Of a DNA stretch of 64,000 nt, positions 16,836 to 62,004 are shown piece after piece; within the stretch, counting starts at the first letter, position 1, and each line of letters opens with the position of its first letter. This stretch comes from Nothopassalora personata (lineage: Eukaryota; Ascomycota; Dothideomycetes; Mycosphaerellales; Mycosphaerellaceae). The translations under genes were made by a program, and so were the position numbers. The notes beneath the pieces were generated by a model, which was given only the letters and a program-made list of their open reading frames with translations, was not told the origin of the DNA and made no database searches. The stretch covers positions 862,573 to 926,572 of the forward strand of contig CM066297.1 in assembly GCA_033816765.1 (NCBI GenBank). Direction: 5' to 3'.

Positions 16836-19830
16836 TTAAGTATACGATTAATCTCGTTAAAGGAAAGAGACCCCCTTTTAAGCCGCTATCCTACTAGTCC
16901 TTAACTAAGCTAGAGGCCTTAAAGGAGTACCTTACGTAAGTAATGGAGAAGGGGTGGATTAGACGATCCGTAAGCGAGGCGGGTGCGCCTATCCTATTCG
17001 TACTAAAGAAGAATAGTACTCTTAGGCTCTATGTAGATTATAGAGACCTAAATGAGATTATAGTAAAGAACCGGTACCTACTGCCCCTAATTAGTAAGAC
17101 CTTAGAGAGCTATAGGGCGCTAGGCTCTTTACTACAATCGACCTATAGGATGCCTACTACCGTATTCCTATTAAGCGAGGAGACGAGTGGAAGACTGCGT
17201 TTCGCACGCGATACGGTTACTACGAGTACTTAGTTATGCCTTTTAGGTTAACTAACGCACTAGCTACCTTTTAGGGGTACATTAATAAGGCCCTTACTAG
17301 GTTAGTAGATAACATCTACGTAGTCTACCTAGATAACATCCTTATCTACAGCGTAACGCGTGCGGAGCACGTGCGAGCCGTACGCGCGGTACTAGAGAGG
17401 CTACGAAAATTCGCCCTGTTTACGAACCTAAAGAAGTGTAGCTTCTTCTAGGAGAATGCCGAGTTCATAGGATTTATCGTAAGTGTCGTAGGCGTATCGA
17501 TAGATAGGAGTAGGGTAGCCGCAATCGAGGAATAGCCTACGCCTACGAGTTTTTATAAGGTTCAATTCTTCCTAGGATTCTATAACTTCTATAGGCGCTT
17601 TATCGAAGGGTACTCGAGGATTGCAAAGCTATTAATAGACCTACTGAAGGGATGTAAGAATGGTAAGAAGCAAGGGCCTCTTATATAGTCCGCTTGCGAG
17701 GAGTAAGCGTTCTAACGGCTAAAAGCTAGGTTCCTCGGAGCACCTATCCTAAGGCACTTCGATCCTTCGTTACGTACGAGGGTTAAGACGGATGCCTTAG
17801 GTTTTGCGATTGTAGGCATTATCTCTTAGCTGTTTAGGACTAAGTAGCATCCAATTACCTTCTATTCTCGTAAGATAATACCTACCGAGTGCAATTATAA
17901 GACCCATAATTAAGAGCTACTAGTAGTAGTAGAGGCATTTAAGCATTAGCGACCGTACCTCGAAGGCGCATCGCATACGGTTTAGGTACTAGTCGACTAT
18001 ACGAACCTGTAGGGTTTTATGATAGTAAAGTAGCTAAACGGGAGGTAAGCTCGATAGGCGACGTTTCTACAATCTTTCGACTTTGTAGTAGAGTATAGGT
18101 CGGGGAAGAGTAACCTAGCCGATACGCTATCGCGACGTAGTAACTACGTACGCGTAGCGTAGTAGACGTTAAACTTGCTTCCTACGCTATAAAGTAAGCT
18201 GTCTTTCTAGAAGGAATCCCTATTAAGAGAGGACGAGCCTATAGTAAGGCGCGTAACCGCTACCTACGAGAAGATGTAGGATAAAGCGACGACAATAGTA
18301 GTAGTAGCCTACGAGCCGTAGGGGACCCGATCGCTACTAGTAAGAGTGTGCGCTATAATAATGTAGGGCGGCCTAGGTAGACTACTTACACTACTAATGA
18401 AAATCGTGTAGGGGAGAGACGATAGGTACGTCGCATACTTATCGTAGGCGCCTAGCGAAGGGGACGCTAAGGACTAGTATATAAAAGACGGGTTAGTCTA
18501 TCGCGGGAACGCAATTGTAGTACCCGAAGACTATGTAGTAAGAGCATAGCTACTCTATATGCATTATAACGACCTACTAGTAGGGCACTTTAGTAAGGTA
18601 AAGACTAAAGAGCTACTGCGACGTTATTACTAGTGGGAATCACTAAGTAAGGATGTAAGGGAGTATGTTAGAAACTGTAGGGCTTATTAGACCTCGAAGG
18701 CGAGGCGCTATCGACCCTACGGCGAGCTATAGCTACTACCTAGGCTAGACGGTCTATAGTAGGAAATCACTATAGATTTCATTACGGACCTACCGCTAAG
18801 TAAGCGAGGAGAATGCGTTTATGATGCGATCCTAGTAATCGTTAACCGCTACTCTAAAATGAACTTATACATTCCTATAACTAAGACATACATAGCGGCG
18901 GAGCTTACGAGGATCTTACGAGACGAAGTCGTGCGGCATTATAGTATGCTAGCGGGCATAGTAAGTGACCGCGGGTTAGTGTTTACGAGTAAGTTCTAGA
19001 GTAACTTCTACTTCGAGGCGTAGGTAAAGCGTAAGCTGTCTATAGCTTTCTACCCTTAGACTAACGGCTAGACCAAGAGGGTAAACTAAACCTTAGAACA
19101 GTACCTTCGTTATTACTGTAGCGAGAACTAGACAGAGTAGGCTAAGTAGCTAGCTGTTACTAAATTCGTATGTAACAATAGCGTCTACCCTACGCTACGC
19201 ATAAGCCTATTCGAAATAGCGCATAGTTAGAGACCTAAGATTGCCCTAACACCTATAGGATCTCGAGGCGAGATTTGGGAAGGGGAGGTACTAGTAGCGG
19301 TAGACTTAGTTAACCGTATACGAGAGATGCGCGCTACGCTTACGAAGCGTTAGGAAATCGCAGTAGCCGATTAGACTCGCTACTATAACAAGACTTATAA
19401 GGCTAAGAGCTATTGCGTAGGCAACATAGTCTTATTATCTACGAAGAACCTAAGGTTAGCATTACCGAAGAAGAAGATAGGTCCGAAGTTTATTAGACCG
19501 TACCGCATTGTCGACGCTATCGGTTCGTAGGCGTACCGCCTAGTACTGCTAGCCGACTTAAGAATTTATAATGTATTCTATGTATCCCTCCTTGAGCCGT
19601 ACGCGGGCAGCGAGAAGGATGGAGGCACCATAGCTCTCGCTAATAAGTACGGGGAATATAAAGTAGAGGCAGTACTAGGAAAGCGTAAGCATAAGGGTAA
19701 AGTGTAGTACCTAGTGCGATAGAAGAGCTAGCTAGAAGAGTATAACAGCTAGGAGCTAGCATAAGGACTCGCGAATGCTACGCGTATAGTAGCCAAATAT
19801 AAGGCGTTAGCGAAGACGGTATAAGCCGGC
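16836..19830 (+). pseudogene. Gypsy-C pol, RIP-mutated, RT motif lost
   Basis: Reads RT (the 16943-17233 fragment has [16 protein letters not shown], shared with Gypsy-A), RNase H (about 17700-18130), integrase zinc-binding and core domains (about 18500-19150) and a C-terminal chromodomain (about 19655-19790, with EYKVEAVLGKRK). The RT catalytic site near 17320-17350 reads YLDN instead of YLDD, a G-to-A change. Many TAG codons interrupt it. Confidence 0.85.
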
Positions 19831-20218
19831 GGAAGGATCCGCGAAGGCTACGCGCATAGTAGCCGAATATAAGGTGCCTACGAAGGTAGTATAAGGCGCT
19901 AAAATGAGGGCATAGGTTATGCATTTAGACCTTAACCCTTCGGTAGCTAGATATAAGGACCTCTACCCCCGATAGTAAACTTAGCTATAACTAGCATAGA
20001 AGATACTAACCTATAGTGTCTTCTATCGGACTAAAAGGCTCGCTTACTTAGTCGAGTAAACACCCCCGATAGTAACAACATTAGAGAGGGAGGTAAGGAG
20101 AGAGAAGAGTAGAGAGAAGAGTATTCATTTTAAAAATAAACTTTTATAGGCGCACTACGGCGCCACGTAGATAGAACATAGGCGCGCAGTAGGCGGCTAA
20201 TATACGCGGAGCGCGCGA

Positions 20219-21290
20219 TTACTCGTTATTATCCTCCTTATTATCCTCCTTATTATACTCGCCCCGTAGGGCTAGTAGTAAGAAGGCCCTATTGGCCGCG
20301 GTAGTATCGATGTTTCTAGCCTATAGGAACTATAACTACGGTTAGCATAGGACACGTATACGACACGTATAGTACTTACAGCACGGCCGAGCTCGAAGAG
20401 CCTATTAAGGGCCCTATTCTACTCTTACTATAGAACTACGGACGTAGTAGCGGCGGCGGAGGAGGGGGTAGTAGCAGTGGAGGCGCCGGCGAAGCGTACG
20501 CGGGTGTCCCCTATACGCTTATTCTTATAGGTAGAGAACTGCCTCTTAGCCTAGGAGGAGGTTAGCTAATTCATATAGGGAGCGATAGTACGCCGCACAT
20601 AGTAAGCGTAGGGAGCGCTAGCGAGGCGTAGCACTTACCTCTAGGATCTACTCGCCTAGCTAGGTATAGAGCTCGTACTACTAATCTAGAGCATCCTACT
20701 CTTATTTAGTAATAGGGTTACTAGGCCCCTAGATAAGCTCATCGCGCTAGGCGCGAGCGGCGCGTAGGCGAGCTACTAGCTACGCGATAGCGACGCTATT
20801 ATTACTAACGTAGGGGTGCCTAATGTCTCTATAGCGCCTACACTTCTTAAGTAACTCGCCGATAGTAATACTATTACACGTATCCTACTCGTCTACTATA
20901 CTATTAGTAAGCGTATCGTAAGCGAAGAGCGTAGCGAATACTCACTAGCTACGAAGTATAGTAGATAGCGTATACACATCTTAATGTCGGTACCTAGGCG
21001 CCTAGCTAGTAAGGACTTAGGGGTCTACGGCCCTAGTGCGCTAAACTTGCGCTTCGCTAGCGTGTCTAGTGCGCCGAGCGCGCTAGACATCTATACTAGT
21101 AGTGCTAGTAATGGTGTTAGTAGTGCTAATAGGCCCCCTATAAGGGCCTCCTAGTAGAGCTAGTCTTAGATAGCTTCCTCTAAAGCTATAGTAGTGCTAG
21201 CGGGTTGCTAGGTAGTCGCTAGCGAGGAGCTAGTAGATCGCTAGTAGTGCGGGTGTAGTGCGCTACGAGAACGTAGTGTAAGGAAAAAAG
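20219..21290 (-). pseudogene. Antisense accessory gene of Gypsy-C with three introns
   Basis: Minus-strand gene opposite to gag-pol, homologous to the plus-strand gene of Gypsy-A. The shared block begins at ATG 20979. Introns are predicted at 20896-20945 (50 nt, GTGAGT, TACTAAT branch), 20551-20638 (88 nt, GTAAGT, GCTAAC branch, CCTAG end) and 20321-20379 (59 nt, GTAAGT, GCTAAC branch). Removing them keeps one frame that matches Gypsy-A on both sides of each junction, for example KNKR/KHKR after intron 2 and AxNIDTTAA after intron 3. The stop is TAA at 20219-20221 after an acidic KEDNKEDNNE tail. RIP has removed several cysteines (C-x2-C now C-x2-Y). The true start upstream of 20979 is not resolved. 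Confidence 0.65.
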
Positions 21291-21505
21291 AAGGAAAAGG
21301 AGGGAGAGGGTACGCTTCTTAAACCCTCGAGTTAGTTAACCCGGCAACTACAACTTCACACCTACCTACACTACGATAACGACACGCACGAGACCCGTAG
21401 GCGGGTCGCATAGTAACGGAATCTACGAGAAGTAGATAGATCACTTACATAGAAATCTCCTAAAGCCGCGAGCTAAGGGTAGCTCGGCCTAGAAGGGGAG
21501 GTAGT

Positions 21506-21703
21506 TGTAAGGGCAGCCTATAGCTAACCCTTATATGTAATACGGCTATGCCCGGCTTAGTATACCGCACGTGACGCGCATACGTACACTAGGAGACGCG
21601 CACAGCGTCTATAGAAGAAAGTAGGCTTTAGTTTATCTACGATTAGAAGATCGTGGGCGTGCTATACATTGCGACATCCCCTTATAGTCTTACGGCCCTA
21701 ATA
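21506..21703 (+). repeat. 3' LTR of Gypsy-C
   Basis: A 198-bp LTR from TGTAAGGGC to CCCTAATA. It is related to the Gypsy-A LTR but ends in an extra segment (TCTTACGG...) shared with the LTR at 61774-61971. Confidence 0.88.
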
Positions 21704-23442: not shown

Positions 23443-23648
23443 TATCACGATCCAAGCGTGCACCGGCGCTGCAGCCTAATTAAACCTAAGGTAGCAGCGG
23501 CTAAGAATTAGGTGACATTGATTAGTCACCTATAGCCTTTCCATAAGCAGCCCTTTCAATTCTAGCTTAGACACATACAATCTACTATCTACTTTTAAGA
23601 TACCTTTATAAGCCCATTTCATGACTTCCAACCACTTGTAACGTAATA
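23443..23648 (+). repeat. 5' LTR of Copia-B
   Basis: 206 bp, matching 30752-30957. It differs by RIP-type transitions such as TATCACG for TGTCACG. Confidence 0.92.
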
Positions 23649-23660
23649 GTTATGAGCCCG
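23649..23660 (+). other. Copia-B primer binding site, internal tRNA-iMet type
   Basis: GTTATGAGCCCG lies immediately after the 5' LTR. It is the exact complement of the anticodon-loop segment of initiator tRNA-Met (GGGCTCATAAC), as in Drosophila copia half-tRNA priming. Confidence 0.75.
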
Positions 23661-26600
23661 ATAGGCGCTCACTAACGTTCGCTGCACAAAACGAAGCCCT
23701 AGAGCAGATTTTGCATCGTCATCAAAAACCAGTAGGATCTATTATTATCCTATCAACAACTATTGCACAGCAGTGCAGTGACCCTAGTGGACCTATAGGA
23801 ACTTTCATTAGGCCTATTAACACCGTTATAGCGACTACCGAGACACCCGGTGGTACCGGTGCTTTGCCGTACGCTACTATCGTTCTTAAGAGTTATGACT
23901 AATGGGACAAGTTTAACCGTCAGTTAGAGCTCTACGCTAAGTCTCTAAACATCTAGAAGTATGTGGATCCGAACGACACTACTGCCGAGCTAATAGAGCC
24001 GGTGTACTTAACGTTCGAGCAAATCCAATTAGCATACACTGCTAAAGACGCTACGGCTAAAGATAAGGAGCTTATTAAGCTCCGCTAGTTAGACGCCGAC
24101 CGTAGGTAGCGGATGTATAACATCTTTACGTCCGCAAGGTCCAAATTGGTCACCTACCTAATTAGGACTACTATAGAGCTAGGCTAAGAGCTTATGCATG
24201 GGAAACGCACTCTTAGAGGCAAGTACTAGGCTCTAAAGACACAGTATAGACTAGACGACATGCTGCGTAAGCGACAACTCACACTAGAGCTAAATAGGCT
24301 TTAGAAGAGCTAAGCCCGAAGGATTAACGACTAGTGCTTAGACTAGCTAGTATTGTAGACTAAGATACTAGATTGCAACTACGCTAAGTACGGAGACCTA
24401 GCACGACACTTCTTACTCGCAATATAGTAGAAGTAAGCTCCTACCTATAGAGCATTACTGTATAACGAGTAGAAGCGTAATAAGCTCTCTCTTAGTAAAC
24501 TTACTAAGCGATACCTCGAATAGATACGCGATACTACCCTAGTTACTAACAGCGGTCGATCAGTCTTTACAACCTTCGTAGGCGAGCTATTAGCCGAACA
24601 CGATCCTCTAGAAGTCCTACCGACCCTAGCACCTACAGTAGGCATAGGGGGTAGGAATGTTGCGGTTGGGCCTTGTCCCTCGTCACGTGGGTGGCCTAGG
24701 AAGTGTCGATCCTCGATATGTCTCTAAAGTAGTGTGAACGAGAGTTCACTACAAGGTTGCAACTTAACACAAGAGTGTTGATTTGAGTTGAGCACGAGGC
24801 TCCTATCTACTCGTAAAGAAGCGTCGTCTATATAGTGCCATGTCTTGGCGTAACTGATCAGACTGGGCAGACTGATCACTGAGCAGACTGAGCGAACTGA
24901 TCACTGAGCTGATCAGTCTGAGCGAAGTCGACCTGCTCAGTTTCGGTCCTTCCCGAAGAATGAGTGGCTGTGGGTTCTTCCTGAACCGAACCGTAACAAG
25001 GAATAACAATAACACGCGTAGCCGTAGCCGCGGCGACAAGAGCCGTGACCGTGGCAATAAGGACAACAAGAGTAGTGATAAGCTAAGCGGCTGCTGGAAC
25101 ATTACCGGCGAGCCTAAGGATAACTGCTATAAGAACCTCTATTTATGTGATGTAGTCAACCCTAAGAAGCGTCCATTAAAGGATTAGCGCTCGGAGCAGT
25201 GGAAGAAGTACTAGAAGCACTTCATTAACTACTGCTTAGGCGATGATAGTGAACGCTTACTAGGTGTTCTAAACCGCAATGGCCGTACGGATGAGGAACG
25301 AGATAAAGCAATTGCTAAGGGCAAAATAGCACCGCACGGCTTCACTAGCCTTACTGTTCTTTCAAGCTCAATTAGCATACTAAGTGTCAACTTTAGGGAT
25401 TGCTAGGTCTATAACAACTGTTTAGACACCTATATAATTAACCATTATAACTAGTAAGGGGTAGAGTTCATTACTAAACGCCTAACCACCTTAGAGATCT
25501 AGGCTAGAATGACAACCTTTCTAATTGCCGTATTAGGGCGTGTTCACATAAAAATACAGGGGTATTCATTCACATTGCTAGATGTTGCCTACTACCTAGG
25601 CTTTTATGTGAATGTCATTTCCTATGCCCGTATAGAAACAGCCGGACTCTAGTGACATGGCCGCACCAATTTAGTCTACTATAACGACTCTAAATTGATG
25701 GACCTCTACCGCCCTACTAGCACAATCCCGTTCTTCAAGGTGGTTACACCGCCTTAGTTAGAGATAGTCTATAAATGGCTATCGAGCAATAATGGGAGCA
25801 TCCTACTAAAGATTACTAAAAAGCAGCGCGCAGCGCACTTTATTAGCACAATTAGCAAGGGTGATACTATCTAAACACCGCCTATTTAGGACTCCAACGG
25901 CGACCGTACCGTTATAGCAGTAATGAACAGCACAGGGGGTACTAAAGGTGTAGTAACGTCTAGTAGGACCCCTATTAAACACCGTAAGCTCTTAGGCCGC
26001 CAGTGGCACTAAATCTTCGGCTATATTAGCGCTAAACGCATTAACTAGCTTCCGTTTAGAGTTGAGGGGGTAGTTATTAACCCTAATGCACCTAAAGCAC
26101 CCCTCACTGCACATTATAGAGCATGTAGCCTAGCTAAGGCATATAAAGTGTTTAACAGGACTAAGCCAATTAGGGCAATGACTCCCTATAGGCACGTAGC
26201 CATGGATTTAGCTAAGTTTACACTAGCATACAATGGTAATCGTTACCTGGTTCATTTCTACGATTTGGATACCTACGGGCACTTTCAATTCACTATTAAG
26301 AATAGGGACTAACCATTAGTATTGGCTTGCTTTAATAGCCTGCTTAGCTTTATCAATTTTATTGGGCGTAGGTTTGTTTGCTTCTATAGCGATAATAAAG
26401 TAGCTATTAGTATAGCCTTCCGCTTAACCATTAACAACAATTAAATTGCGTAGTACAACACTACTAACTACGCGTCTAACTAGGACCTAGTAGAACGAGC
26501 GGGCGGCGTCATTATTACGATGTCTCGCATAATCCGCATTTATGCTCGCCTGCCTAAAAAGCTCTAGAATGAATGCATAGCAGCTGCCGTCTATATTCTC

Positions 26601-29350
26601 TAGCGGTTACTAATCTAATTAAAAGGCTGGAAGACTCTCTTCGAATTGGCAATAGGCAGGGTACTAAATGTGGGCCACATAGTAGTGTACGGCTGCCTAG
26701 CCTACGTGTACATTCATAGCACTACTCAACTAGGCAAGACTAAGAAGCTTAAAGAACGAGCACTCATCGGATACCTTGTAGGCTACGACTCTACTAACAT
26801 CTATAGGGTGTAGGACCTATCGAAAGATAGGGTTATGCGGGTAAAGGACGTCCTCTTTAATGAGACTACGTTCTACGACCTATCAATTCTCACTACTAGT
26901 TACTTAACCCCTATTGAGAACATCGTAACAGTAGAACCGGCTAAAGAGCCTAAACAGTACTACGACCTATATATAGCTCACTATAAGTAGGACACAGCAT
27001 AGGCCGAGGGGGTGGAAGAATAGGCTTAATAGTAGCCGCTCTATTAAAACCCTCGTTAACACGCCCATTAACAATTACTACTTAGGCATGAACTATACTA
27101 GCCACAACACCGAGCGCTAGCAACATTCAACCAACCTGAAGGTAACAGCAGTTTCTAGCTACTTGATTAGCCGTCATTAAATGACGCTGTAACCCCTGCA
27201 CTTTCACGAGACTAGGTCAAATCCGGGGTCGAACTAGCGACTAATGAGAGTATAGAGAACTCTAACTACAACAACAACGCGGTAAACAACAGTGACGCGT
27301 CTAAACAACAGTACATTAACATACTGTAATAGCAGTTAATAGATGCCCTTATAGAGGAAGATCGTAAGGAGCTTATAGTAGATGCTTCGACGACTTTAAA
27401 TGTCGCTACCGCTCCGCCTCCAATCCCCTTCGAAGAACTTAGCTAAATAGATAACTTTTCCGCTAACACTAATTACGCCCTTACCGGATCCGGCAAGAGA
27501 CTTAGAACGGCCTACTTCTACTATACTCTACACAATATTATAGTTGCTAACGTTATTATTAGCTAGATAGCGGGCATCCGCTAGAGACCTCGTTATCTAG
27601 GCCGTAAGTACTACGATGTCCTTCGATCCGAACGTACACGCAACTTCTCTCCTCTACGCCGTATTAACACTATTACGTCGATGCACCGCAATGACCTTCC
27701 GCCCGAACCTCTAAACTACCGTACCGCTATAAAGTACCGCTTCGCCTAACAATAGCGTGAAGCTATAGCTAAGGAGTTTGCTAAGGCAATCTCTACTAGC
27801 ACATTCAAATGGGCAACTTAGTAAGAGAAGGATTATAATGCTTAGCAAGAAGAGGAGGGACTTCAGCCACTACTGCCGCTAAAGTGGGTGTACAAGTATA
27901 AGCTAGATAAGCATAGCATACTAAAGAGCTTTAAGGCCCGGCTATACGCAAGAGGCGATCTATAGGGCATACACTTAGATACATACGCCGCCACACTACT
28001 AGTAAGCATGTTCCGCCTCTACTATACTATAGCCGCGAGCTTCGACCTAGAAGCTAAACAGTTTAATGTTGTAAATGCCTTTCTAAATTCGGACCTGCCG
28101 TATACTATGTACCTATAACTACCTCCTAGAATCGAACGCAATAGTTATACTCTTAAACTGGTTAAGGCCCTCTACGGACTTAAGGAATCCCCTCTCCTTT
28201 AGTACAACTGTCTTACTGCAACGCTTGCCTCCCTAGGCCTAGTTCCCCTATTAGACTCTAAATGCATCTACTATAACGATAAGGTTATGTTCTTCTTCTA
28301 CGTAGACGACCTAGTTATGCTCTACTATCGTAAGAACAAGGCCTATGCTACATACATTAAGCACCGGCTTCTTAACGTATACAAGATGCGCGAGCTCGGA
28401 GACCTGACCTAGTTCTTAGGGATTAAGGTAACACGAGACCGGTAAAAGAGACTGCTATAGCTCTTATAAGAGGACTATATTAAGAAGCTCGCCGCTAAGT
28501 TTAGCATATCTACTAGCGTACGTAAGACAACAGTACTAGTGGATTAACACCTCGACTAGATAGTGCCTAAGGGCTATGTTATAGATGCTATAAAGATCCT
28601 TACGTACTAACAGCGCATTAGGTCTCTAAACTTCGTAGTAATACACATACGCCTAGACATCGCCTTCTCCTTATTAATGCTCTCGCAGTACCTAACTAAG
28701 CTAACGGATACGCATCTAAAGCTTACGGATTAGTGCCTACGCTACCTCCTAGAGACTAAGAACCTCTGCCTTGTGTATAGCGCTAGTAAGCACATTACTA
28801 GCCTACATAGTCAACCTAAACATCTCGGCAAGAACTATGAGTTCTTCGGCGCATTAGATGCCTCCTACGGCATAAACGTCGATAGGACTAGCTCTAGCGG
28901 ATGGATCTTTATACTGTTCGGCGGACTAGTCGATTACAAAGCCTCTAAGTAGATCACTGTTACTAAGTCCTTAACCGAAGCCGAACTCCTTAGCCTATTA
29001 TAAGCGGCATTAGAGCTAATCTAGTAGGAACGCATCTTCGCCGAGATCTATCTCGAGTTCAACTAGTGCATATACCTGTACTATGACAACACCTAGACTA
29101 TTCGACTTGTTAACTAGTAAGGGTAAAAGCTTAACACTAAGCTGCGCTATATTAACATCCATTACTATTAGCTCCGCTAGAGAGACTAACGAGGAGATAT
29201 CGAGATTCGGTATCTTAACACTAACGACATGCCTATAGATAGGCTTACTAAGCTGCTGCTACTACAAAAGTATAAGCACTTCGTAAAGCTACTTAATATA
29301 GCTAAGGAAGGCGTAGATCCACGCTCCTTAGCGCCTACTGTAGATGCTAA
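23661..29350 (+). pseudogene. Copia-B gag-pol, RIP-mutated
   Basis: Gag spans about 23711-25200 once the solo LTR 24658-24998 is set aside. It includes an Arg/Gly/Asp-rich stretch near 25015-25075 and a Cys-containing remnant of the zinc knuckle near 25095. Integrase lies at about 26080-26830, ending in a typical Copia IN-end motif (GYLVGYDS near 26770). Reverse transcriptase lies at about 27880-28450 with intact YVDDLVM near 28297-28320. RNase H lies at about 28850-29250. Stops are mostly TAG/TAA. Confidence 0.85.
24658..24998 (-). repeat. Solo LTR (family S), reverse orientation, TSD AGGAA
   Basis: A 341-bp insertion in Copia-B gag from TGTTGCGG to CCGTAACA, with perfect 5-bp duplications AGGAA at 24653-24657 and 24999-25003. 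In reverse orientation it shares with the LTR at 870-1217 a core of about 65 bp around the TATA-like CTATATAG, and a dense cluster of TGATCA/CTGATCAG elements upstream of that core (24858-24930). The open frames crossing it (24803-25102, 24960-25187) are artefacts of the insertion. Confidence 0.9.
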
Positions 29351-30360
29351 CACTAGCCGCATTACCTTAGGGGGTAATGATAACGCTTAAGATGCGTAGG
29401 CCTACTACACTAGTAGCTCTTCTCGATAGTTACTAGTACTAGGCTTTGACTACAGGACTCCTCTTCTCGGCGCATTACAGCATGCACGACATAGTAATTA
29501 GCCACCACTAAGCGCTGCTTCCATTATGCCTCTCCTTCCGCATTCGGATAGATGCGACTTCCCTTTTATCCTTTTTATGCCAAAACAGGAAGGAACCAGT
29601 AGCAGGACTACATAAAAACACCTCTTCAGTTCTAAACCCTTCCTCTTTCTTCAACTAACATAGACCGGTAGAGGCTGTATAGTATGTTCGGCACTACTGT
29701 CTCCTCTACCGGCTCCGTACTACCGCCTAGCGCCGCTAGCGCCGCTACCGCTAGAGCAAGCGTCTACTATTCACCGGCGCTGCCCTAGCACCATTATTAC
29801 TAGGTGTTTCTCGGACTCCCATTGGCCCATAGCAAAAGGACCGGAAACACCCCTATTACTAGCAGCGGTGTAGCGTATAAGCACCTATAACGGCGTAGCT
29901 AATCACAGGCGCCGAAACACCATTAACCTCGCTACTAGCAGTATTACTATCACTACCTCCGTTACTATATTACAACGATCGTTATAACATCATCGATGCC
30001 TCCATTATCGCCCTTACCTCACTTAGAGATAGCATCTCTACCCGCTAGGCGTGCAGCACCTGCAGCACTACCGTCGCTAGGATTACCCTTACCCTAAGCA
30101 AAAAGATAGGCCTTTATAAGCTATGAAGACCTTTCATTAGGCAAAAGAGTTCCTACTAGGACGTAGCTAAATAGTAATCTCTACCTAAGGCAGGAAACGG
30201 AGCTCTCTAAGACCGTGACCGAAGTTATATATACGCGGTTATTAGATAGTAGTAAGGCACCCCAATTGCCGAAGTAATAGCGTACTATAACACCTAGGAT
30301 TTTAATTAAGAATAATGGAGCGGACATTGAAGCGGACGATAGGCTAAGCAATAAATTCAG
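29351..30360. other. Copia-B region after RNase H, no recognised gene
   Basis: About 1 kb between the end of pol and the tRNA-like block. It has CAC/TAC-rich low-complexity stretches (29700-30090) but I recognise no coding frame. It may be a 3' extension of the element or a degraded extra ORF. Confidence 0.5.
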
Positions 30361-30475
30361 TAGATATAATAACCCCTAGGACTCGAACCTACAACCTCAC
30401 ATGTCCGTTAAAATGTAGGGAGATAGCACGCCTTGCCGTTTAGTGCTATAAGAACAGCTTAGCCACCCCACCGGA
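30361..30475 (-). repeat. tRNA-like block with Pol III A and B boxes
   Basis: On the minus strand a perfect A box TGGCTAAGCTG (complement of 30455-30465) is followed 65 nt later by a perfect B box GGTTCGAGTCC (complement of 30379-30389). The T-arm around the B box almost pairs (4 of 5), but the acceptor ends do not pair, so this is not an intact tRNA. It could be a tRNA-derived SINE or a tRNA pseudogene inside Copia-B. No TTTT terminator follows closely. Confidence 0.45.
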
Positions 30476-30751
30476 CAAGATTCACATCGTTTAGAACCTA
30501 TTATATAGGTTAACTATAGTGTGAGGGACTTGGTGAGATTGTAAATAGGGATGTAAGGCTAGGACAATAGCCTCACCTAAAACACTGACTTAGCGCCCTA
30601 CTATGTAGCTCACAATGGAGCTCTAACAAGCACGTAGTAACGAAGCCTAACGTTATGAGGTGGGTGGGTAGGGTAATAGGTGGTGGATGGGGTGCACGCG
30701 ATTACATGCAATTAGCTCATTCACCTACAAGCCGCACGAGCTAAGGGGGTG

Positions 30752-30957
30752 TGTCACGATCTAAGCGTGCACCGGCGCTATAGCCTAATTAAACCTAAGG
30801 CAGCAGCGGCCAAGAATCAGGTGACATTGATTGGTCACCTACAGCCTTTCCATAAGCAGCCCTTTCAATTCTAGCTTAGACACATGCAATCTACTATCTA
30901 CTTTTAAGATACCTTTATAAGCCCATTTTATAACTTCTAACCACTTGTAACGTGATA
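30752..30957 (+). repeat. 3' LTR of Copia-B
   Basis: 206 bp beginning TGTCACGATC. It is less RIP-mutated than the 5' LTR except at its outer end (GTGATA). Confidence 0.92.
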
Positions 30958-31389: not shown

Positions 31390-31394
31390 TACAT

Positions 31395-31591
31395 TGTTAA
31401 GGGGATGTCGCAATGTATAGCACGCCCACGACCTGCCAGTCGTAGATGAACTAATTCTTGCCTTTTGTTCAAGACGCATCGCGCGTCGTAAGGTGTACTC
31501 ATGCGTGTCACGTGCGGCTTAGCAGCCGGTCGCGACCGTATGTTACATATAAGGCTACATGTAGGGGTTAGCTACTAGGCTGCCCCTTACA
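31395..31591 (-). repeat. 3' LTR of Gypsy-A
   Basis: 197 bp. Its outer half (31395-31500) is nearly unmutated, whereas the inner half (about 31510-31591) carries RIP-type changes relative to 37890-38088. Confidence 0.93.
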
Positions 31592-31764
31592 ATTGCCTCC
31601 CCTCCCGTGCAAGCTGTCCTTAGCTCGCTAGTTGCTACGTAGAGGCTCCTATGTACTTCTAGAACTATAGTTGCTATGTAGCCCACATGCGGGTTGCGTG
31701 CGTGTCGTTATGTAGGTGTAGGTGAGTGAGGCTTAGTTACTATGCCGACGCAGCTAGTTAGGGG

Positions 31765-31771
31765 TATAAAA
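31765..31771 (+). promoter_or_regulatory. TATA box of the Gypsy-A antisense gene
   Basis: TATAAAA, about 110 bp before the Ser-rich open frame that leads into the zinc-cluster exon, and on the same strand as that gene. It suggests the antisense gene has its own promoter just inside the 3' LTR. Sequence evidence only. Confidence 0.5.
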
Positions 31772-31879
31772 CTCTAGCCTAACCTAGCCCTTTCTTAGCA
31801 CGCTCCCTAGCTCATTACCTTCGCTACACCACCACCACGCACCCGCACCGCACCATTATCGCAAGCGCCTCGCTAGCAT

Positions 31880-32830
31880 TATTATCATCATCATTTCTAC
31901 CGTGCCCTCCTCGCCGCCATTCTCTAGCCGCTCCGCCTCCTCTAGTAGCACTAGTAGCGATAGCACCACTAGCGCCGTAGAAGACGAGCGCCGCTAGGCG
32001 GCTCTAGTGCGCGACGCCCCTAGAACGCCTAGTGGCCGCAAGCGACTAGCATTACCCTCGTAGCTATTAACGCCCTCGCTAGCCACTAAGCTCTCGTAGA
32101 GAATTAACATGTGCATGCGGTGCCTCCCGTACTTCGTTAGGGGTAAGTCTCTACGCGTGTCGCCTGCAATTCGTATGCTAACCACTTGCTAGACGAGGCC
32201 GATAACTGTAATAGTGTTACTACCGGCGAGCTCCTAAAGAAGTGTAGCCGCTGTAGGCGTAGCAAACACAGCTACGTGCCTAACACTAGCCACGCCATCG
32301 CCTCGCTAGTGAGCCGCCTACGCGCCGCGCGGTCCTAGCGCGACTTCCTTACGGCTATAATAGGCTAGGCGCCTATAGACCTCTAGTAGTAGGAGCTAGT
32401 AGAGTAGATCCGCCTATATGCCTAGCTAGGCAACGACATTAAGGAGGTAAGTCGCTACTTCGCTCGTGCGAGTCGACTACTACTCGCCGGGGAGGGCTCT
32501 AGTGCGTCCCCTATGCTTCGGCTGACCCTTCCTATAGGCCATTAGGCAGTTTAATGCCTATAAGCATAAGCGTGCCGGGGAGACCCGCATACGTGCCTCC
32601 GCCGCCGCCGCTACTACTGCCGCCGCCCCTGCCGCCGAAGCCCTCGCGCTCTAGTAGGAGCAGAACCGCGCCCTTAATGGGCTATTTGAACTCGGCCGCG
32701 CCGTGAGTCGCATGTTCCTCGCCTACGTGTACCCTACTAACCGTGGTCCTAGTTCCTGTAGGCGTAGAACATCGATACTACCGCCGCCGACTAGGCATTC
32801 TTGCCTAAGTCACTACGTGACGACAACTGA
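31880..32830 (+). pseudogene. Antisense accessory gene of Gypsy-A, three introns, Cys6 motif
   Basis: Plus-strand gene opposite to gag-pol. A Ser/Thr/Arg-rich N-terminal part, broken only by TAG codons, leads into MCMRCLPYFVR (ATG 32109). Predicted introns are 32143-32192 (50 nt, GTAAGT, GCTAAC branch, CTAG end), 32447-32537 (91 nt, GTAAGT, GGCTGAC branch) and 32703-32761 (59 nt, GTGAGT, TACTAAC branch, GTAG end). All three removals keep frame and match Gypsy-C. The spliced cysteines are spaced C-x2-C-x11-C-x11-C-x2-C-x6-C; the last is now Tyr (TAC from TGC). The second half, KKCSRCRRSKHS, resembles the second half of fungal zinc clusters. Helical Arg/Glu/Gln-rich sequence follows, then TGA at 32828. 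The first ATG is not certain. A DNA-binding role is inferred only. Confidence 0.68.
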
Positions 32831-32959
32831 GGCGCTCGCCTTACACGCTACTCGCGGGCTCCTCGCCTACTACTACTCTACGTAGCCCCTGGTAGGCGCG
32901 CCACTCTTTAGCTTTTGTTTTGTTTATAGTTGAGAAAAGTTTTGTTTATGCTCTAGTGC

Positions 32960-35900
32960 TAGTCTCATTTACTTCTCCTTTACGCCTTATAGTCGGCTAC
33001 TATACGATCCGCATTCGCGAGGCCCTCCGCCGGTTCCTAGCTGTTGTACTCCTCTAGCTAGTCCTTCTACTAGACTAGATACTGCAGCTTGCCCTTGCGC
33101 TTACGCCTATCTAGTACTGCCTCTACCTTATACTCTCCGTCCTCATTAGCTAGAGGGGGTACGGGTCCATCCTCATTGCTACCGATATACGGCTCGAGGA
33201 GAGAGATATAGAAGACGTTATAGAGCCTTAAGTCGGCTAGTAGCGCTAGGCGGTACGCCTACGAACCGACAGCGTCCGTAATGCGGTATAGGCCGATGAA
33301 CTTCGGACCTATCTTCTTCTTTAGCACTACTAACTTAAGGTTCTTCGTTAACAACAGGACTAAGTTACCTACGCGGTAGGTCTTAGCTTAGTAGGTCTTG
33401 TTGTAGTAGCGAGCCTAGCTTTCTGCTGCAGCCTTCCATCGCTCCTCGAGTGTAGCGCGTAGTTTTCGCATACGACTCGTAGCTGTTACCGCTGCTAGTA
33501 CTTCCCCCCCCCTAGGTCTCGTCTCGAGATCCAGTTAGTGCAGGGGCAATCTCAGGTCGCTAACCGTGCGCTATTTCGAACGGACTCATCCGCAGTATTA
33601 GGTAGATGCTGTTATTAGCTACGAATTTAGCAACTGCAAGCCACTTAGCCCACTTAGTTTAATTGTTACTGCAGTAATAACGAAGGTATTGTTCGAGGGT
33701 TTGGTTTGCCCTCTTAGTTTAGCCGTTAGTCTAAGGGTGAAAGGCCGTGGATAGCTTACGCTTTACACGCGCCTCGAAGTAGAAGTCACTCCAAAACTGA
33801 CTAGTAAAGACCGGACCTCGGTCGCTCACTATGCCTAACGGGACACTATAGTGTCGCACGACTTCGTCTCGTAGGAGCCTCGCAAGCTCCACGGCTGTGC
33901 AAGTCTTCGTCGTCGGGATGTATAAGCTCATTTTTAAGTAGCGATTGACTATTACTAGGATCGCATCATACACGCAACCGGCTCGCGTACTTAGAGGTAG
34001 GTCCGTAATAAAATCTATAGTAATTTCCTACCACGGTCGCTCCGGTCTAGGAAGCGGTTGCAGCTCGCCGTAGGGTCGATAGCGCCTCGCCTTCGAACCC
34101 TAGTAGGTTCTATAGGCTTGGTCGTATTGTTTCACGTCCGTGCTAAGTGAGTCCTACTAATAATTACGTCGCAACAGCTCTTTAGTCTTAGTCCTTCTAA
34201 AGTGACCCGCGAGGACGTCGTCGTAGTGCATGCGAATTAGATGCGACCTGATTGCGTGATCCCTAGGTACTACGATCGCGTCTCCGCAGTACATAAGGTC
34301 ATCCTTTACATGCCATCCCTTAGCGTCCCTCGCGCTTAGCGCCTACGCTAAGCATGCGACACACTAGTCGTCTTACTACTGCGCAATCTCTATCAAGAGT
34401 AGGATCAACTCACCCGTCGAGCTATAAGCTTAACCCTGTATCACTGTAGCGCACACTGCTACTAGTAAAGACGGCTTATCTTAATGGGGAAGGTCACCTC
34501 TCCGCACTACCATCGCCGCGCCTATGTCGCCCTACATCGCCTCGTAGGTGGTAAGCACGCGCTTCACCGTCGGCTCGCTTATCCCTTCTAGAGACTCCTT
34601 CTAGAAAGACAGCTTACTTTATAAGGTAGGCAGCAAGTTCGAAGTTTATTGCGTTATAGCTACGTAGTTACTGCGTCTCGAAGGCGCGTCGGCTAGGTTA
34701 GTCTTACCCGGCTGATGCTCTACTATAAAATTAAAAGACTATAGGAACGTAGCCTATCGAGCTTACCGCCTATTTAGCTGCTTTACTGTTATAAAGCCCT
34801 GTAGGTTAGCGTAGTCGACTAGCACTCGCACCGCATACGTAGCGCCCTCTAAGTATGGTCTCCAATGCTTAAAAGCCTTAACTACTGTAAGTAGATCCTA
34901 ATCGTGCGTCTCGTAGTTACACTTAGCTAGTATCATCTTACGTAAATAGAACGCGATAGGATGCCACTTAGCACTAAACAATTGGGATATAATACCTACG
35001 ATCGCGAAACCTAAGGCATCCGTCTCGACTCGCGTACGTAGCGTAGGATCGAAGTGCCTAAGTATTAGTGCACCTAAGAATCCGGCCTTAAGCTATCGAA
35101 ACGCCTACTCTTTGCTTAAGGTCCACGTGAGACGGCCGTGCTTCTTGCCGTCCTTAGATCCCTTTAGTAGGTCCGTTAGGGGCTTGTAGACCCTTAAGTA
35201 TCCTTCTATAAAACGCCGGTAGAAGTTGCAAAACCTAAGGAAGGACTAGACCTTATGAAAGGTCGTAGGTGTAGGCCATTCCTCGATAGCGGCTACCCTG
35301 CTCCTATCTATCGACACGCCTACGGCGCTTACGACAAACCTAAGGAACTCTACACTCTCCTAGAAGAAGTAACACTTCTTAGGGTTTACGAACAGGGCAA
35401 ACTTTCGTAGCCTCTCTAGCACCGCGCATACGGCTCGCACGTGTGCCTTACGCGTCTCGCTATAGATGAGGATATCATCTAGGTAGACTACGTAAATGTC
35501 ATTAACTAAGCCGGTTAGCGCCTTGTTAATATACCCTTAAAAGGTTGCCGGTACGTTAGTTAACCCGAACGGTATTACTAGGTACTCGTAGTGTCCGTAT
35601 CGCGTGCGAAACGCAGTCTTCCACTTATCGCCTCGCTTAATAGGGATACGATGGTAGGCGTCCTTTAAATCGATTGTAGTAAAGAACCTAGAACCTAATA
35701 GCCTATCTAGCGTCTCGCTGATTAGGGGTAGGGGGTATCGGTTCTTTACTATAATCTCATTTAGGCCTCTATAATCAACACAGAGCCTAAGAGTGCTATT
35801 CTTCTTTAGCACGAATAGGATAGGCGCACCCGCCTCGCTTACGGACCGCCTAATCCACCCCTTCTCCATTGCTTACGTAAGGTACTCCTTTAAGGCCTCT

Positions 35901-37870
35901 AACTTAGTTAAGGACTAGTAGTATAGCGGCTTAAAAGGGGGTTTCTTTCCTTTAACGAGATTAATTGTATGCTTAACCCCGTCGGGCATCTTGCGCTTCG
36001 CCTACTTATTAGGTGCGTATACATCTCGGAAGTCTACAAATTCTTTAGGCTACGAGGGGCCCTCTCCTTTAGGTACTGCTGCAGCAATAGCCCGAACACT
36101 TATCGCATAAACCTGCTTTAAGCTCTCGAGATCCTTAAGGAACTCGCGTGCGTCACGCTACTAAACCGTAGGCGTCTCTACACCGTAGTACTACTAGTCA
36201 TCCTTATCGGCCTTTACTATCCGATTACGATGCCGCTAGGGTCTACCTAAAATCACTAATAGCCTACCTATAGGTACCGCGTAGTAGATGGCGTTACTCA
36301 CGCGCTCTACTCCCGCGTTATTAGCGAGTCGCAGCTGAACCGCAAAGGCGCCGTAGCAATACCCTAGCTTATGCGTATACGACTCTAACTTCGGTAGCCT
36401 TACCCTATTAATAGGTTGTATTTAATGTCGGAGTATATACTTATACGATACTAGGCTAAGATCCGCACAGTTATCTAGGAGAAACGTGGCCTCGCGAAAG
36501 CCCTTACGAGTCTCGACTGCGCCTCGCAAGTGACGCGCTAGACACGCATCTACTCGCCTTAAGGGGTCGACTTTAGGAAAACTCGGACTTAGGAGCGACC
36601 TACTTATGGTCCTCTGCCTTTTCCCTAGTCGCTACGATAGACACACATCCACTCGCCTTAAGGGGTCGACTTTAGGAAAACTCGGACTTAGGAGCGACCC
36701 ACTTCTAGTCCTCTGCCTTTTCCCTAGTCGCTGCCCTTCTTAGTTAGAGCCTTCGTAGCGTCTACCCTACGAACCGCTTACGCGCTACGGTCCTTCCATA
36801 GGTGCCTATTCGGGCAATCCGTCTTAATGTGACCCTTCTTATAGCATCTATAGCACTCCGCTTTAGTCCTATCGAAGGTTATAGACAATCCGCCGGCGTC
36901 CCGCTAGTAACTCGCACCCGGGTCGCGCGACGCCTAACTATGCTTCTACTGCTTCGAGCTACGATCGCTTCGCCCTTAGTCGCCCTTAGTCTCTCGCCTA
37001 CGGCGACTATGCTGCCCGCGGTCGTGCCCTCCGCTACTACGCTCCGTGCTTTTAATGCGCGAAGCTAGGATTACTAGTTCCTCTCTAGTTGTTAGGATGT
37101 TATGAAACTTAACGATTGCGGACCGTAGGCTAGGCGTAAGCTTAGCGAGCATATGTCGCACGCGTTGCGCCTCCGTATAGTCCCCTAACTAATCCTCTAT
37201 AACATCTAGCTTAGTCGCAAACTAACGCACTGTCTAGTTGTCCTTCTGTTTTACCGCCTTATACTCTAACATTACGTTAAGCACGCGGTTCATAGGATCA
37301 CCGTATACGTCTCGACAGAACTCCTTAAAGTCCTAGTATGTATACCCTTTAAGGTTAAGGACGCTATAGTTAGCGTACCATCGCTTACTTGCCTCTCCGC
37401 TTAGGTACATAACCCCATACAGGACCTTTGACTCGTTCGTCGCATACGTGCCGCCTAAGAGGGTAAAGACAAGAGAGAGCTCCCTTAGGAATACCCGTGC
37501 TTTCTTAATCGAGTCCCCTCTAAAAGGCGTAGGTTCTTTAAGACGCAAACGTGTCGTATGCGATGCGACCGCGTCTCGAGCTGCGATATCATCGTTAGTT
37601 ACTATAGATAGAGGAGGGGGAGGGGGAGTAGGGGATAGTTCTCCGCCGGGTTCGCCCTAAGGGTCCGCCGGCGGCACGCTTACGTCCCGCAAGATCTCTA
37701 ACTGTTTAATCTCCCTCTATATCTCCTTCTCCTTAACCTCTACCCGAAGGGCATCCCTCCTTACGACTAAGGCTACACGCCTCGCTTGTTGCTAGGCCCT
37801 AGGGCTTAGGTGAGCCGCAGGCGTAGCGCTGCTGTCGTCGCGTTCGGACTCTATAGCGTGTATAGATTGC
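32960..37870 (-). pseudogene. Gypsy-A gag-pol
   Basis: Minus strand. Gag lies at about 36800-37870 (LKEPTPFRGDSIKKARVFLR near 37545, then a zinc knuckle CYRCYKKGHIKTDC near 36810-36860). RT lies at about 35400-35990 ([16 protein letters not shown] start at 35869; catalytic YLDDIL intact near 35465-35500). RNase H lies at about 34650-35200. Integrase lies at about 33650-34250, including the 33731-33973 open piece with VSDRGPVFTS. The chromodomain lies at about 32990-33160 (EYKVEAVLDRRK). Stops are RIP-type TAGs. The near-duplicate of about 95 bp at 36560-36640 and 36640-36735 is a local tandem duplication between gag and protease. Confidence 0.85.
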
Positions 37871-37889
37871 AACGAAGAGAAGAATTAGA

Positions 37890-38088
37890 ACTGTTAAGGG
37901 GATGTCGCAATGTATAGCACGCCTACGACCTGCTAGTCGTAGATGAACTAATTCTTGCCTTTTGTTCAAGACGCATCGCGCGTCGCAAGGTGTACTCATG
38001 CGTGTCACGTGTGGCTTGGCAGCCGGTCGCGACCGCATGTCACATGCAAGGCCACATGTAGGGGTTAGCCACTGGGCTGCCCCTTACA
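37890..38088 (-). repeat. 5' LTR of Gypsy-A
   Basis: 199 bp, close to its unmutated state and almost the same as the solo LTR at 7111-7307. Confidence 0.93.
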
Positions 38089-38093
38089 TGCAT

Positions 38094-61773: not shown

Positions 61774-61971
61774 TATAAGGGCAGCCTATAGCTAACCCTT
61801 ACATATAATGCGGCTATGCCCGGCTTAGCATACCGTACGTAACGCGTATACGTACACTAGGAGACGCGCATAGCGTCTATAGAAGAAAGTAAGCTTTAGT
61901 TCATCTACGATTAGAAGATCGTAGGCGTGCTATACATTACGATATCCCCTTATAGCCTTACGGTCCTAACA
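61774..61971 (+). repeat. 5' LTR of Gypsy-D
   Basis: 198 bp, starting TATAAGGG (RIP-altered TGTAAGGG) and ending CCTAACA. It is closest to the Gypsy-C LTR at 21506-21703, with which it shares the 3' extension. Confidence 0.88.
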
Positions 61972-62004
61972 GTTCTAAAGCTTCCCCTCGTTATAATCTA
62001 TATA

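What the first reader, a model, noticed from the sequence alone, without database searches (positions are those of the whole stretch)
31880..32830. Antisense, intron-bearing Cys6 gene inside a Gypsy chromovirus
Between the chromodomain end of pol and the 3' LTR of Gypsy-A, on the strand opposite to gag-pol, lies a gene with a Ser-rich start, a six-cysteine motif (C-x2-C-x11-C-x11-C-x2-C-x6-C after splicing) and an Arg/Glu-rich helical part. Three introns of 50, 91 and 59 nt with GTAAGT/GTAAGT/GTGAGT donors and CTAAC or CTGAC branch sites each preserve the frame. Introns can survive retrotransposition only if the gene is antisense to the genomic RNA, which is what the layout shows. Antisense ORFs in this position are known from some plant Gypsy lineages; I do not know of one with a zinc-cluster product and introns in fungi. 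A role in controlling the element or its host's transcription is speculation.
Basis: partly seen in the sequence, partly recalled or inferred. Interest (0 to 1): 0.92.

Follow-up and report, generated by a model that had tools for sequence, protein, structure and literature searches.

The report
Spliced antisense gene in fungal retrotransposon
A jumping gene of a fungus carries, written backwards near one of its ends, an extra gene with introns for a cysteine-rich protein; the copy in this window is mutated to death, but intact copies exist elsewhere in the genome and the protein has been preserved by selection, which suggests that the jumping gene uses it.

Summary
Between the chromodomain end of pol and the 3' LTR of a Ty3/Gypsy element lies an antisense gene of four exons (31893-32830). 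The window copy is a RIP-killed pseudogene: no start codon, 14 internal stops. In the same genome 24 copies have an open exon 2; one read in full (L067) encodes 245 aa with C-x2-C-x11-C-x11-C-x2-C-x6-C. The introns lie at the same places in a second family, also in this window, and in divergent copies. Constraint between families is strongest in the claimed frame: 82 amino-acid changes against 109 expected, 0 of 1000 shuffles as low; one reverse frame shows a weaker signal. No copy analysed has lost an intron by splicing, as an antisense gene predicts. Pfam, PDB and protein searches gave no relative; PF00172 was not matched. Antisense genes at this position are known in fungi: brtn of Boty-like elements. 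Introns and a Cys6 product may be new. Function is inferred, most likely an accessory regulator; there is no transcript evidence.

The parts
31395..31591 (-). 3' LTR of element A (gag-pol on the - strand), TG...CA
   Evidence: 197-nt direct repeat, 94%; 12 differences, all transitions
37892..38088 (-). 5' LTR of element A
31390..31394 (.). probable 5-nt target-site duplication TACAT; partner TGCAT at 38089-38093
   Evidence: read directly
31592..31892 (+). leader and putative promoter/5' UTR of the antisense gene; its first ~15 nt are purine-rich on the - strand (probable PPT)
   Evidence: similarity to family B runs from the LTR to about 31723; promoter and PPT roles inferred
31893..32142 (+). 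exon 1 (Ser-rich N terminus, first C-x2-C); start codon position reads ATT in the window
32143..32192 (+). intron 1, 50 nt, GTAAGT...CTAAC...TAG
   Evidence: 53 nt at the same position in family B
32193..32446 (+). exon 2, 254 nt in families A and B: C-x11-C-x2-C-x6-C and helical part
32447..32537 (+). intron 2, 91 nt, GTAAGT...CTGAC...TAG
   Evidence: 88 nt in family B
32538..32702 (+). exon 3 (basic, then Ala-rich and Gln/Glu-rich)
32703..32761 (+). intron 3, 59 nt, GTGAGT...CTAAC...TAG
   Evidence: 59 nt in family B
32762..32830 (+). exon 4 with stop codon TGA 32828-32830
32112..32275 (+). six-cysteine stretch (residues 74-111 of the intact product, interrupted by intron 1); sixth Cys codon is TAC in the window
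32965..33132 (-). 3' end of pol: stop codon 32965-32967 and chromodomain (its limits carried over from L062); pol and antisense gene are tail to tail, 134 nt between stops
   Evidence: PF00385 E 1.5e-16 on the same ORF of L062
35537..35872 (-). reverse transcriptase piece of pol
   Evidence: PF00078 E 8.9e-16; Ty3 gag-pol chain in the PDB E 5.9e-28, best chain RT/RNase H E 1.2e-28
20219..21267 (-). the same gene in element family B (opposite orientation): exons 21267-20946, 20892-20639, 20550-20380, 20320-20219; introns 53/88/59 nt (start of exon 1 arbitrary)
16836..21684 (.). element family B: pol similarity 16836-19807, LTR and adjacent leader similarity 21364-21684, gene B between

Best explanation
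[quoted passage not shown] Shown by sequence: four exons and three introns, exon 2 open in 24 young copies and the whole gene open in the one full-length copy read, conserved as a protein between element families, kept with its introns through many transpositions, killed by RIP in older copies. Inferred: it is transcribed by RNA polymerase II from a promoter in or next to the 3' LTR, spliced, and translated into a protein of about 245 residues with a Ser-rich N terminus, a six-cysteine (probably zinc-binding) module and a basic helical part. The genomic RNA is the other strand, where the introns are not recognised, so they are copied into every new insertion. The protein most likely works in the nucleus as a small regulator of the element (transcription, silencing or integration), as HBZ/APH proteins do for HTLV and as proposed for the TRP28 antisense proteins of plant Retand elements.
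For: Gene real: 30 of 30 A places and 30 of 30 B places keep frame and intron lengths. Stops are RIP: 14 of 14 internal stops of the window copy align with Gln in L067; 82 of 88 C>T/G>A changes (94 differences in all, 31890-32860) are at CpA or TpG. Intact copies: 24 of 150 scored exon-2 matches have no stop, all 24 beside an open pol C terminus; 24 of 27 copies with open pol C terminus have open exon 2. Selection: 82 amino-acid differences against 109 expected (0 of 1000) for A against B; three further pairs also 0 of 1000. In one search four of the other five frames show nothing and one reverse frame a weaker signal (92 against 108, 0 of 1000). Cys columns: 360 of 360 cells of the 30 A and 30 B places are Cys or Tyr, 35 of 36 in six sequences that include divergent copies, as expected if RIP turns Cys (TGY) into Tyr (TAY). 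Antisense precedents with nuclear regulators: passages.
Against: No transcript data. No relative among candidates from about 5.8 billion proteins, Pfam, NCBIfam or PDB. A cysteine module does not prove zinc or DNA binding; in family B columns 104 and 111 are Tyr in 30 of 30 copies, so Cys there is inferred; the exon-2 model is of low confidence (pLDDT 57). One copy with open pol (C5:4244072, 1408 aa) shows no gene match in the lists, so the gene may be dispensable, at least in trans. By spacing, 24 of 26 young gene-bearing copies carry a deletion of 36 codons (three were fetched), so that part is not strictly needed. Exon divergence (195/506) is only slightly below intron divergence (81/197): constraint is moderate. 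The transversion test by codon position gives p 0.03, 0.04 and 0.09 for A against three copies and no significance within the B group.
Confidence: 0.42

Rival explanations
1. The product is a structural or nucleic-acid-binding helper of the particle (a second nucleocapsid or packaging factor, or an aid to nuclear entry or integration) rather than a regulator of transcription.
For: Cysteine module, basic and helical stretches; conserved together with pol in two families.
Against: A protein made from a separate, spliced antisense mRNA is not obviously matched to gag in amount or time; spacing is not that of a CCHC knuckle (C-x2-C-x4-H-x4-C, recalled).
Confidence: 0.25
2. The product counters host defence (RIP, quelling or heterochromatin), which is strong in this genome.
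For: The 60 A and B places analysed are heavily RIPed (TA/AT 2.4-3.5, against 0.46 in intact L062), so a defence pressure exists.
Against: The copies were RIPed all the same; no match to any silencing suppressor family in Pfam or NCBIfam.
Confidence: 0.15
3. A captured host gene carried as a passenger, with no use to the element.
For: Introns and a gene-like leader suggest a cellular origin; open pol copy C5:4244072 shows no gene match.
Against: Shared by two diverged families with protein-level constraint and introns kept in place; a passenger would decay.
Confidence: 0.13
4. The antisense unit acts mainly as RNA (dsRNA or siRNA with the convergent pol transcript) and the reading frame is incidental.
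For: Tail-to-tail layout with pol, stops 134 nt apart.
Against: Constraint is on amino acids and strongest in one frame; the in-frame deletion and kept splice phases also point to protein.
Confidence: 0.05

Closest known systems
brtn of Boty-like retrotransposons (Botrytis cinerea, also Sclerotinia sclerotiorum; Zhao et al. 2011, not held: known here through passages of PMC8365987, PMC7264820, PMC4227169 and PMC5987419)
   Same: Fungal Ty3/Gypsy element whose gag-pol has RT, IN and CHROMO; additional gene antisense to gag-pol between pol and 3' LTR.
   Different: Sequence of BRTN was not available, so homology, introns and cysteine motif could not be compared. The passages read mention no introns or cysteine motif of brtn.
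Antisense aORFs of plant Gypsy elements (Grande, RIRE2, Retand/TRP28; PMC7264820 passages and section 5, PMC11963269 passages)
   Same: Same position and orientation; conserved in most copies; TRP28 predicted to bind DNA; Grande protein nuclear.
   Different: Retand is a non-chromovirus lineage; the word 'intron' occurs 0 times in both texts; TRP28 (PF04195) was not among the Pfam matches here.
HBZ / APH antisense genes of HTLV-1 to -4 (PMC10186651, passages)
   Same: Antisense gene at the 3' end, promoter in the 3' LTR, spliced mRNA, small, mostly nuclear protein (analogy for how it may work, not kinship).
   Different: HBZ is a bZIP protein, not Cys6; here there are four coding exons, and no promoter or transcript has been shown.
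Zn2Cys6 fungal transcription factors (PF00172)
   Same: Six cysteines; the half C-x2-C-x6-C with basic residues (CGRCRRSKHSC) resembles one half of the cluster (recalled).
   Different: Other half is C-x2-C-x11-C; no PF00172 match listed at E up to 10.

Membership tests
Ty3/Gypsy chromovirus (element) | Ty3-type RT and a chromodomain at the C terminus of pol | tested here: met
   PF00078 8.9e-16 on the window piece and PF00385 1.5e-16 on the L062 ORF; PDB hits RT/RNase H 1.2e-28 and Ty3 gag-pol 5.9e-28
Ty3/Gypsy chromovirus (element) | LTRs TG...CA with 5-nt target duplication | tested here: met
   197-nt LTRs; flanks TACAT / TGCAT, equal but for one RIP-type difference; solo LTR at 7111-7307 with GCTGC on both sides
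brtn-type antisense gene | Antisense to gag-pol, between pol and 3' LTR of a fungal chromovirus | tested here: met
   description of brtn. That the host is a fungus is inferred (RIP, short introns)
brtn-type antisense gene | Sequence homology to BRTN | not testable with these tools
   No BRTN sequence at hand; three protein searches found nothing at E <= 10; Zhao et al. 2011 not held
Zn2Cys6 zinc cluster (PF00172) | Spacing C-x2-C-x6-C-x5-12-C-x2-C-x6-8-C (recalled) | tested here: not met
   C-x2-C-x11-C-x11-C-x2-C-x6-C in the intact copy L067
Zn2Cys6 zinc cluster (PF00172) | Match to the Pfam profile | tested here: not met
   Not among matches at E up to 10 for the full protein or the Cys fragment; HMMER's filters drop most matches above about 0.1
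Retand TRP28 antisense protein (PF04195) | Match to the Pfam profile | tested here: not met
   Not among matches (same caveat on filters)
HBZ-like antisense regulator (works like) | Spliced antisense transcript from a 3' LTR promoter | not testable with these tools
   No RNA data; splice sites are largely kept

The most novel reading that the evidence does not exclude
Fungal chromoviruses carry a previously undescribed family of intron-bearing antisense genes whose Cys6 product is a trans-acting regulator of the element: a transposon parallel of the HTLV antisense regulators, with four conserved coding exons kept through reverse transcription because they lie on the strand that is never packaged.
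Probability: 0.3. Interest if true: 0.8.

Novelty: new variant of a known kind. Interest (0 to 1): 0.62.

Why it matters
Introns are normally erased when a gene goes through an RNA intermediate, so a multi-intron gene kept in place through many rounds of retrotransposition in two diverged families is a clean natural demonstration that strand alone can protect them. Antisense accessory genes of LTR elements are known from plants, fungi and retroviruses, but the passages read call the function of those in retrotransposons unknown. Here a single genome holds intact young copies, an in-frame deletion variant and many RIP-killed copies (92 exact hits of one RIP-mutated 21-mer), so transcription, splicing and the role of the protein become directly testable.

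Tried and rejected
Read-through translation as a mere chance open frame: rejected by frame-dependent constraint and by intact copies. Protein searches with the X-masked window protein (7997 candidates scored), with an X-masked alignment of A and B copies (7997 scored) and with the intact L067 protein, residues 68-237 (1322 candidates): nothing at E <= 10; how many fungal proteins the database holds is not known. Pfam matches were all below cut-off for the gene product: Ribosomal_60s, Cu2_monoox_C, Rpn3_C, UL92, NEMO; NCBIfam HrpA E 3.7. PDB chance matches: L8 E 4.1 and a hexosaminidase E 6.6, TetR E 1.1, none for the Cys fragment. Scans of viral and prokaryote contigs with exon 2: 9 and 83 pattern hits, none confirmed. 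Fold of exon 2 alone: pLDDT 57, not searched further. A third element in the window (61833-62891) is the LTR and gag end of a B-like copy; no gene was found in the 9.9 kb fetched there. L068 loses similarity after exon 2 and was used only up to there. The bacterial promoter scan was not used. The host species was not identified; that it is a fungus is inferred.

The transversion test by codon position was weaker than the reshuffling test: p 0.014 for the two window copies; p 0.03, 0.04 and 0.09 for L067 against three other copies, and p 0.15 to 0.46 within the B group. One reverse frame also showed a signal (92 against 108 with B, 94 against 111 with L070, both 0 of 1000; BLOSUM 4 and 9 of 1000); I read it as the echo of the frame that shares third positions, without a separate test. 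The N-terminal Ser-rich part does not align between families and was left out of all selection tests.

Full report
What is there. The window lies in a 54.5-Mb genome of 40 contigs; that it is a fungus is inferred from RIP, short introns and the element. Element A runs from 31395 to 38088 with 197-nt LTRs, TG...CA ends and flanks TACAT/TGCAT. Its gag-pol is on the minus strand, with a Ty3-type reverse transcriptase (window piece) and a C-terminal chromodomain (tested on the same ORF of copy L062), so it is a Ty3/Gypsy chromovirus. On the plus strand, between the 3' LTR and the pol stop at 32965, lies the gene of the finding: exons 31893-32142, 32193-32446, 32538-32702 and 32762-32830.

The window copy is dead, and how. 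It has ATT at the start position and 14 internal stops. Against the intact copy L067 it has 94 differences over 31890-32860; 88 are C>T or G>A and 82 of these lie at CpA or TpG, the signature of RIP. All 14 internal stops align with glutamine in L067. The two LTRs differ at 12 sites, all transitions.

Copies. A DNA search scored 40 of 492 candidates and gave 41 matches. The 30 fetched places (the window among them; 29 distinct gene sequences) keep introns of 50, 91 and 59 nt and the frame, with 12 to 17 stops including the terminal one; single donors vary and intron 2's AG is lost in one copy (L007). One more fetched copy (L064) has the same intron lengths. A 21-base piece of exon 2 occurs 120 times with C or T at one base and 92 times with T alone. 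A protein search with the X-masked exon 2 scored 150 of 491 candidates; 24 have no stop in exon 2. Four of these were fetched: L067 is full length, and L062, L065 and L066 share a 167-nt deletion that removes 36 codons and intron 3 and joins exons 3 and 4; it is in frame where the whole gene was read (L062). No more than 1 difference separates any two of the four over the aligned gene. A DNA search with L067 scored 40 of 319 candidates: 2 full-length unmutated copies (one is a base shorter) and 11 deletion copies are among them.

The young elements. A search with the last 169 residues of pol scored 150 of 1609 candidates; 27 have no stop, and 20 of those lie in open frames of 1220-1408 aa. All 24 copies with open exon 2 lie beside such an open pol end, and 24 of 27 have open exon 2; two more carry the 21-base piece in its unmutated form, and one (C5:4244072) shows no gene in the lists. 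By spacing, 24 of the 26 gene-bearing ones carry the deletion. These young copies are nearly identical, so they count as few lineages, not as 27 independent events. In L062 the roughly 85 nt of 5' LTR that could be read match its 3' LTR exactly.

A second family and divergent copies. Element B in the same window, in opposite orientation, has the same gene at 21267-20219 (minus strand) with introns of 53, 88 and 59 nt at the same codon phases and an exon 2 of the same 254 nt. The 30 B places fetched keep these intron lengths, with 20 to 22 stops including the terminal one; exons 3 and 4 vary by multiples of three, and in 24 of 30 the third donor reads AT in place of GT, again RIP-like. A search with B scored 150 of 499 candidates down to 69% identity, none free of stops. 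Of three divergent copies fetched, L069 and L070 have all three introns at the same places; L068 follows through intron 1, exon 2 and into intron 2 and then diverges.

Selection on the protein. For 174 alignable codons from the end of exon 1 to exon 4, A (L067) and B (window) differ at 202 bases and 82 amino acids. Relocating the same changes at random, with RIP context kept, gives 109 on average, and 0 of 1000 trials reach 82; L067 against L070 and L069 and B against L070 also give 0 of 1000. The plus-strand frames shifted by one and two give 114 against 113 and 128 against 117. Of the three reverse frames, two show nothing and one shows a weaker signal (92 against 108, 0 of 1000), which I take as an echo of shared third positions; the picture repeats with L070. 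The N-terminal Ser-rich part was left out because it does not align. Against this: divergence of exons and introns is similar (195/506 and 81/197), so constraint is moderate, and transversions alone give p 0.014 to 0.09 between families and nothing within the B group.

The product. L067 encodes 245 residues: Ser-rich start, C74-x2-C77-x11-C89-x11-C101-x2-C104-x6-C111, then basic and helical parts. In the 30 A and 30 B places all 360 cells of the six columns are Cys or Tyr (columns 104 and 111 are Tyr in 30 of 30 B copies); with the divergent copies 35 of 36 cells of six sequences, one being His. TGY to TAY is what RIP of the other strand does. No match to PF00172, TRP28 or any Pfam, NCBIfam or PDB entry at a meaningful level, and none among the scored candidates of the large protein database. 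A fold of exon 2 alone shows helices at low confidence.

Why the introns survive. The genomic RNA of an LTR element is the sense transcript. Introns of an antisense gene read there as their reverse complements and are not spliced. In the 68 places analysed (30 A and L064, 30 B, 4 intact, 3 divergent) no intron is lost cleanly; intron 3 is missing only where a deletion also took exon sequence, and L068 diverges before it. This is the expected outcome for an antisense gene.

What is known. Zhao et al. 2011 described the antisense gene brtn in Boty-like elements of Botrytis cinerea; the paper is not held and I saw it only through passages of papers that cite it and one section of a review. Plant Gypsy elements (Grande, RIRE2, Retand) have antisense genes at this place; the Retand protein is thought to bind DNA and may regulate the element (passages). 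HTLV antisense genes are spliced and encode mostly nuclear proteins that repress the 5' LTR (passages). A survey of LTR elements in fungi has no occurrence of 'antisense' (passages). In ten searches of the paper library I saw, by titles and abstract openings, no report of an intron-bearing or Cys6 antisense gene in a fungal LTR element; most subscription papers are not held, so this is weak evidence of absence.

Verdict. A real, intron-bearing antisense gene conserved as a protein in two chromovirus families of one fungus: near certain as a gene (about 0.95), most likely an element-encoded accessory regulator (0.42), a new variant of a known kind. Transcription, splicing and function are untested.

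Noticed in passing
window 7111-7307: Solo LTR of family A (98% to the 5' LTR at 37892-38088), flanked by GCTGC on both sides.
   Followed up: partly
window 23445-30957: Another probable LTR element with 204-nt direct repeats (94%) and an ORF at 26049-26312 that looks like a Copia integrase (label recalled, no search).
   Followed up: no
window 36536-36732: Tandem duplication of 98 nt in the gag-pol region of element A.
   Followed up: no
window about 33505 and L062 about 2490-2557: The integrase part of pol changes frame near a G run in the window copy and in L062, while 20 of 27 young copies have a long open pol frame of 1220-1408 aa.
   Followed up: partly
L062, L065, L066: 167-nt deletion between short GCCGAC repeats removes 36 codons and intron 3 and fuses exons 3 and 4 in frame; by spacing it is in 24 of 26 young gene-bearing copies, 3 of them with a further 66-nt loss.
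   Followed up: yes
G000:C5:4244072-4244578: Copy with open pol frame of 1408 aa but no gene match in the lists.
   Followed up: partly
L070: The fourth cysteine position reads His (CAT) in this divergent copy, the only one of 36 cells not Cys or Tyr.
   Followed up: no
G000:C6:4422440-4423489: Second full-length unmutated copy of the gene, one base shorter than L067 and absent from the open exon-2 list; sequence not read.
   Followed up: no
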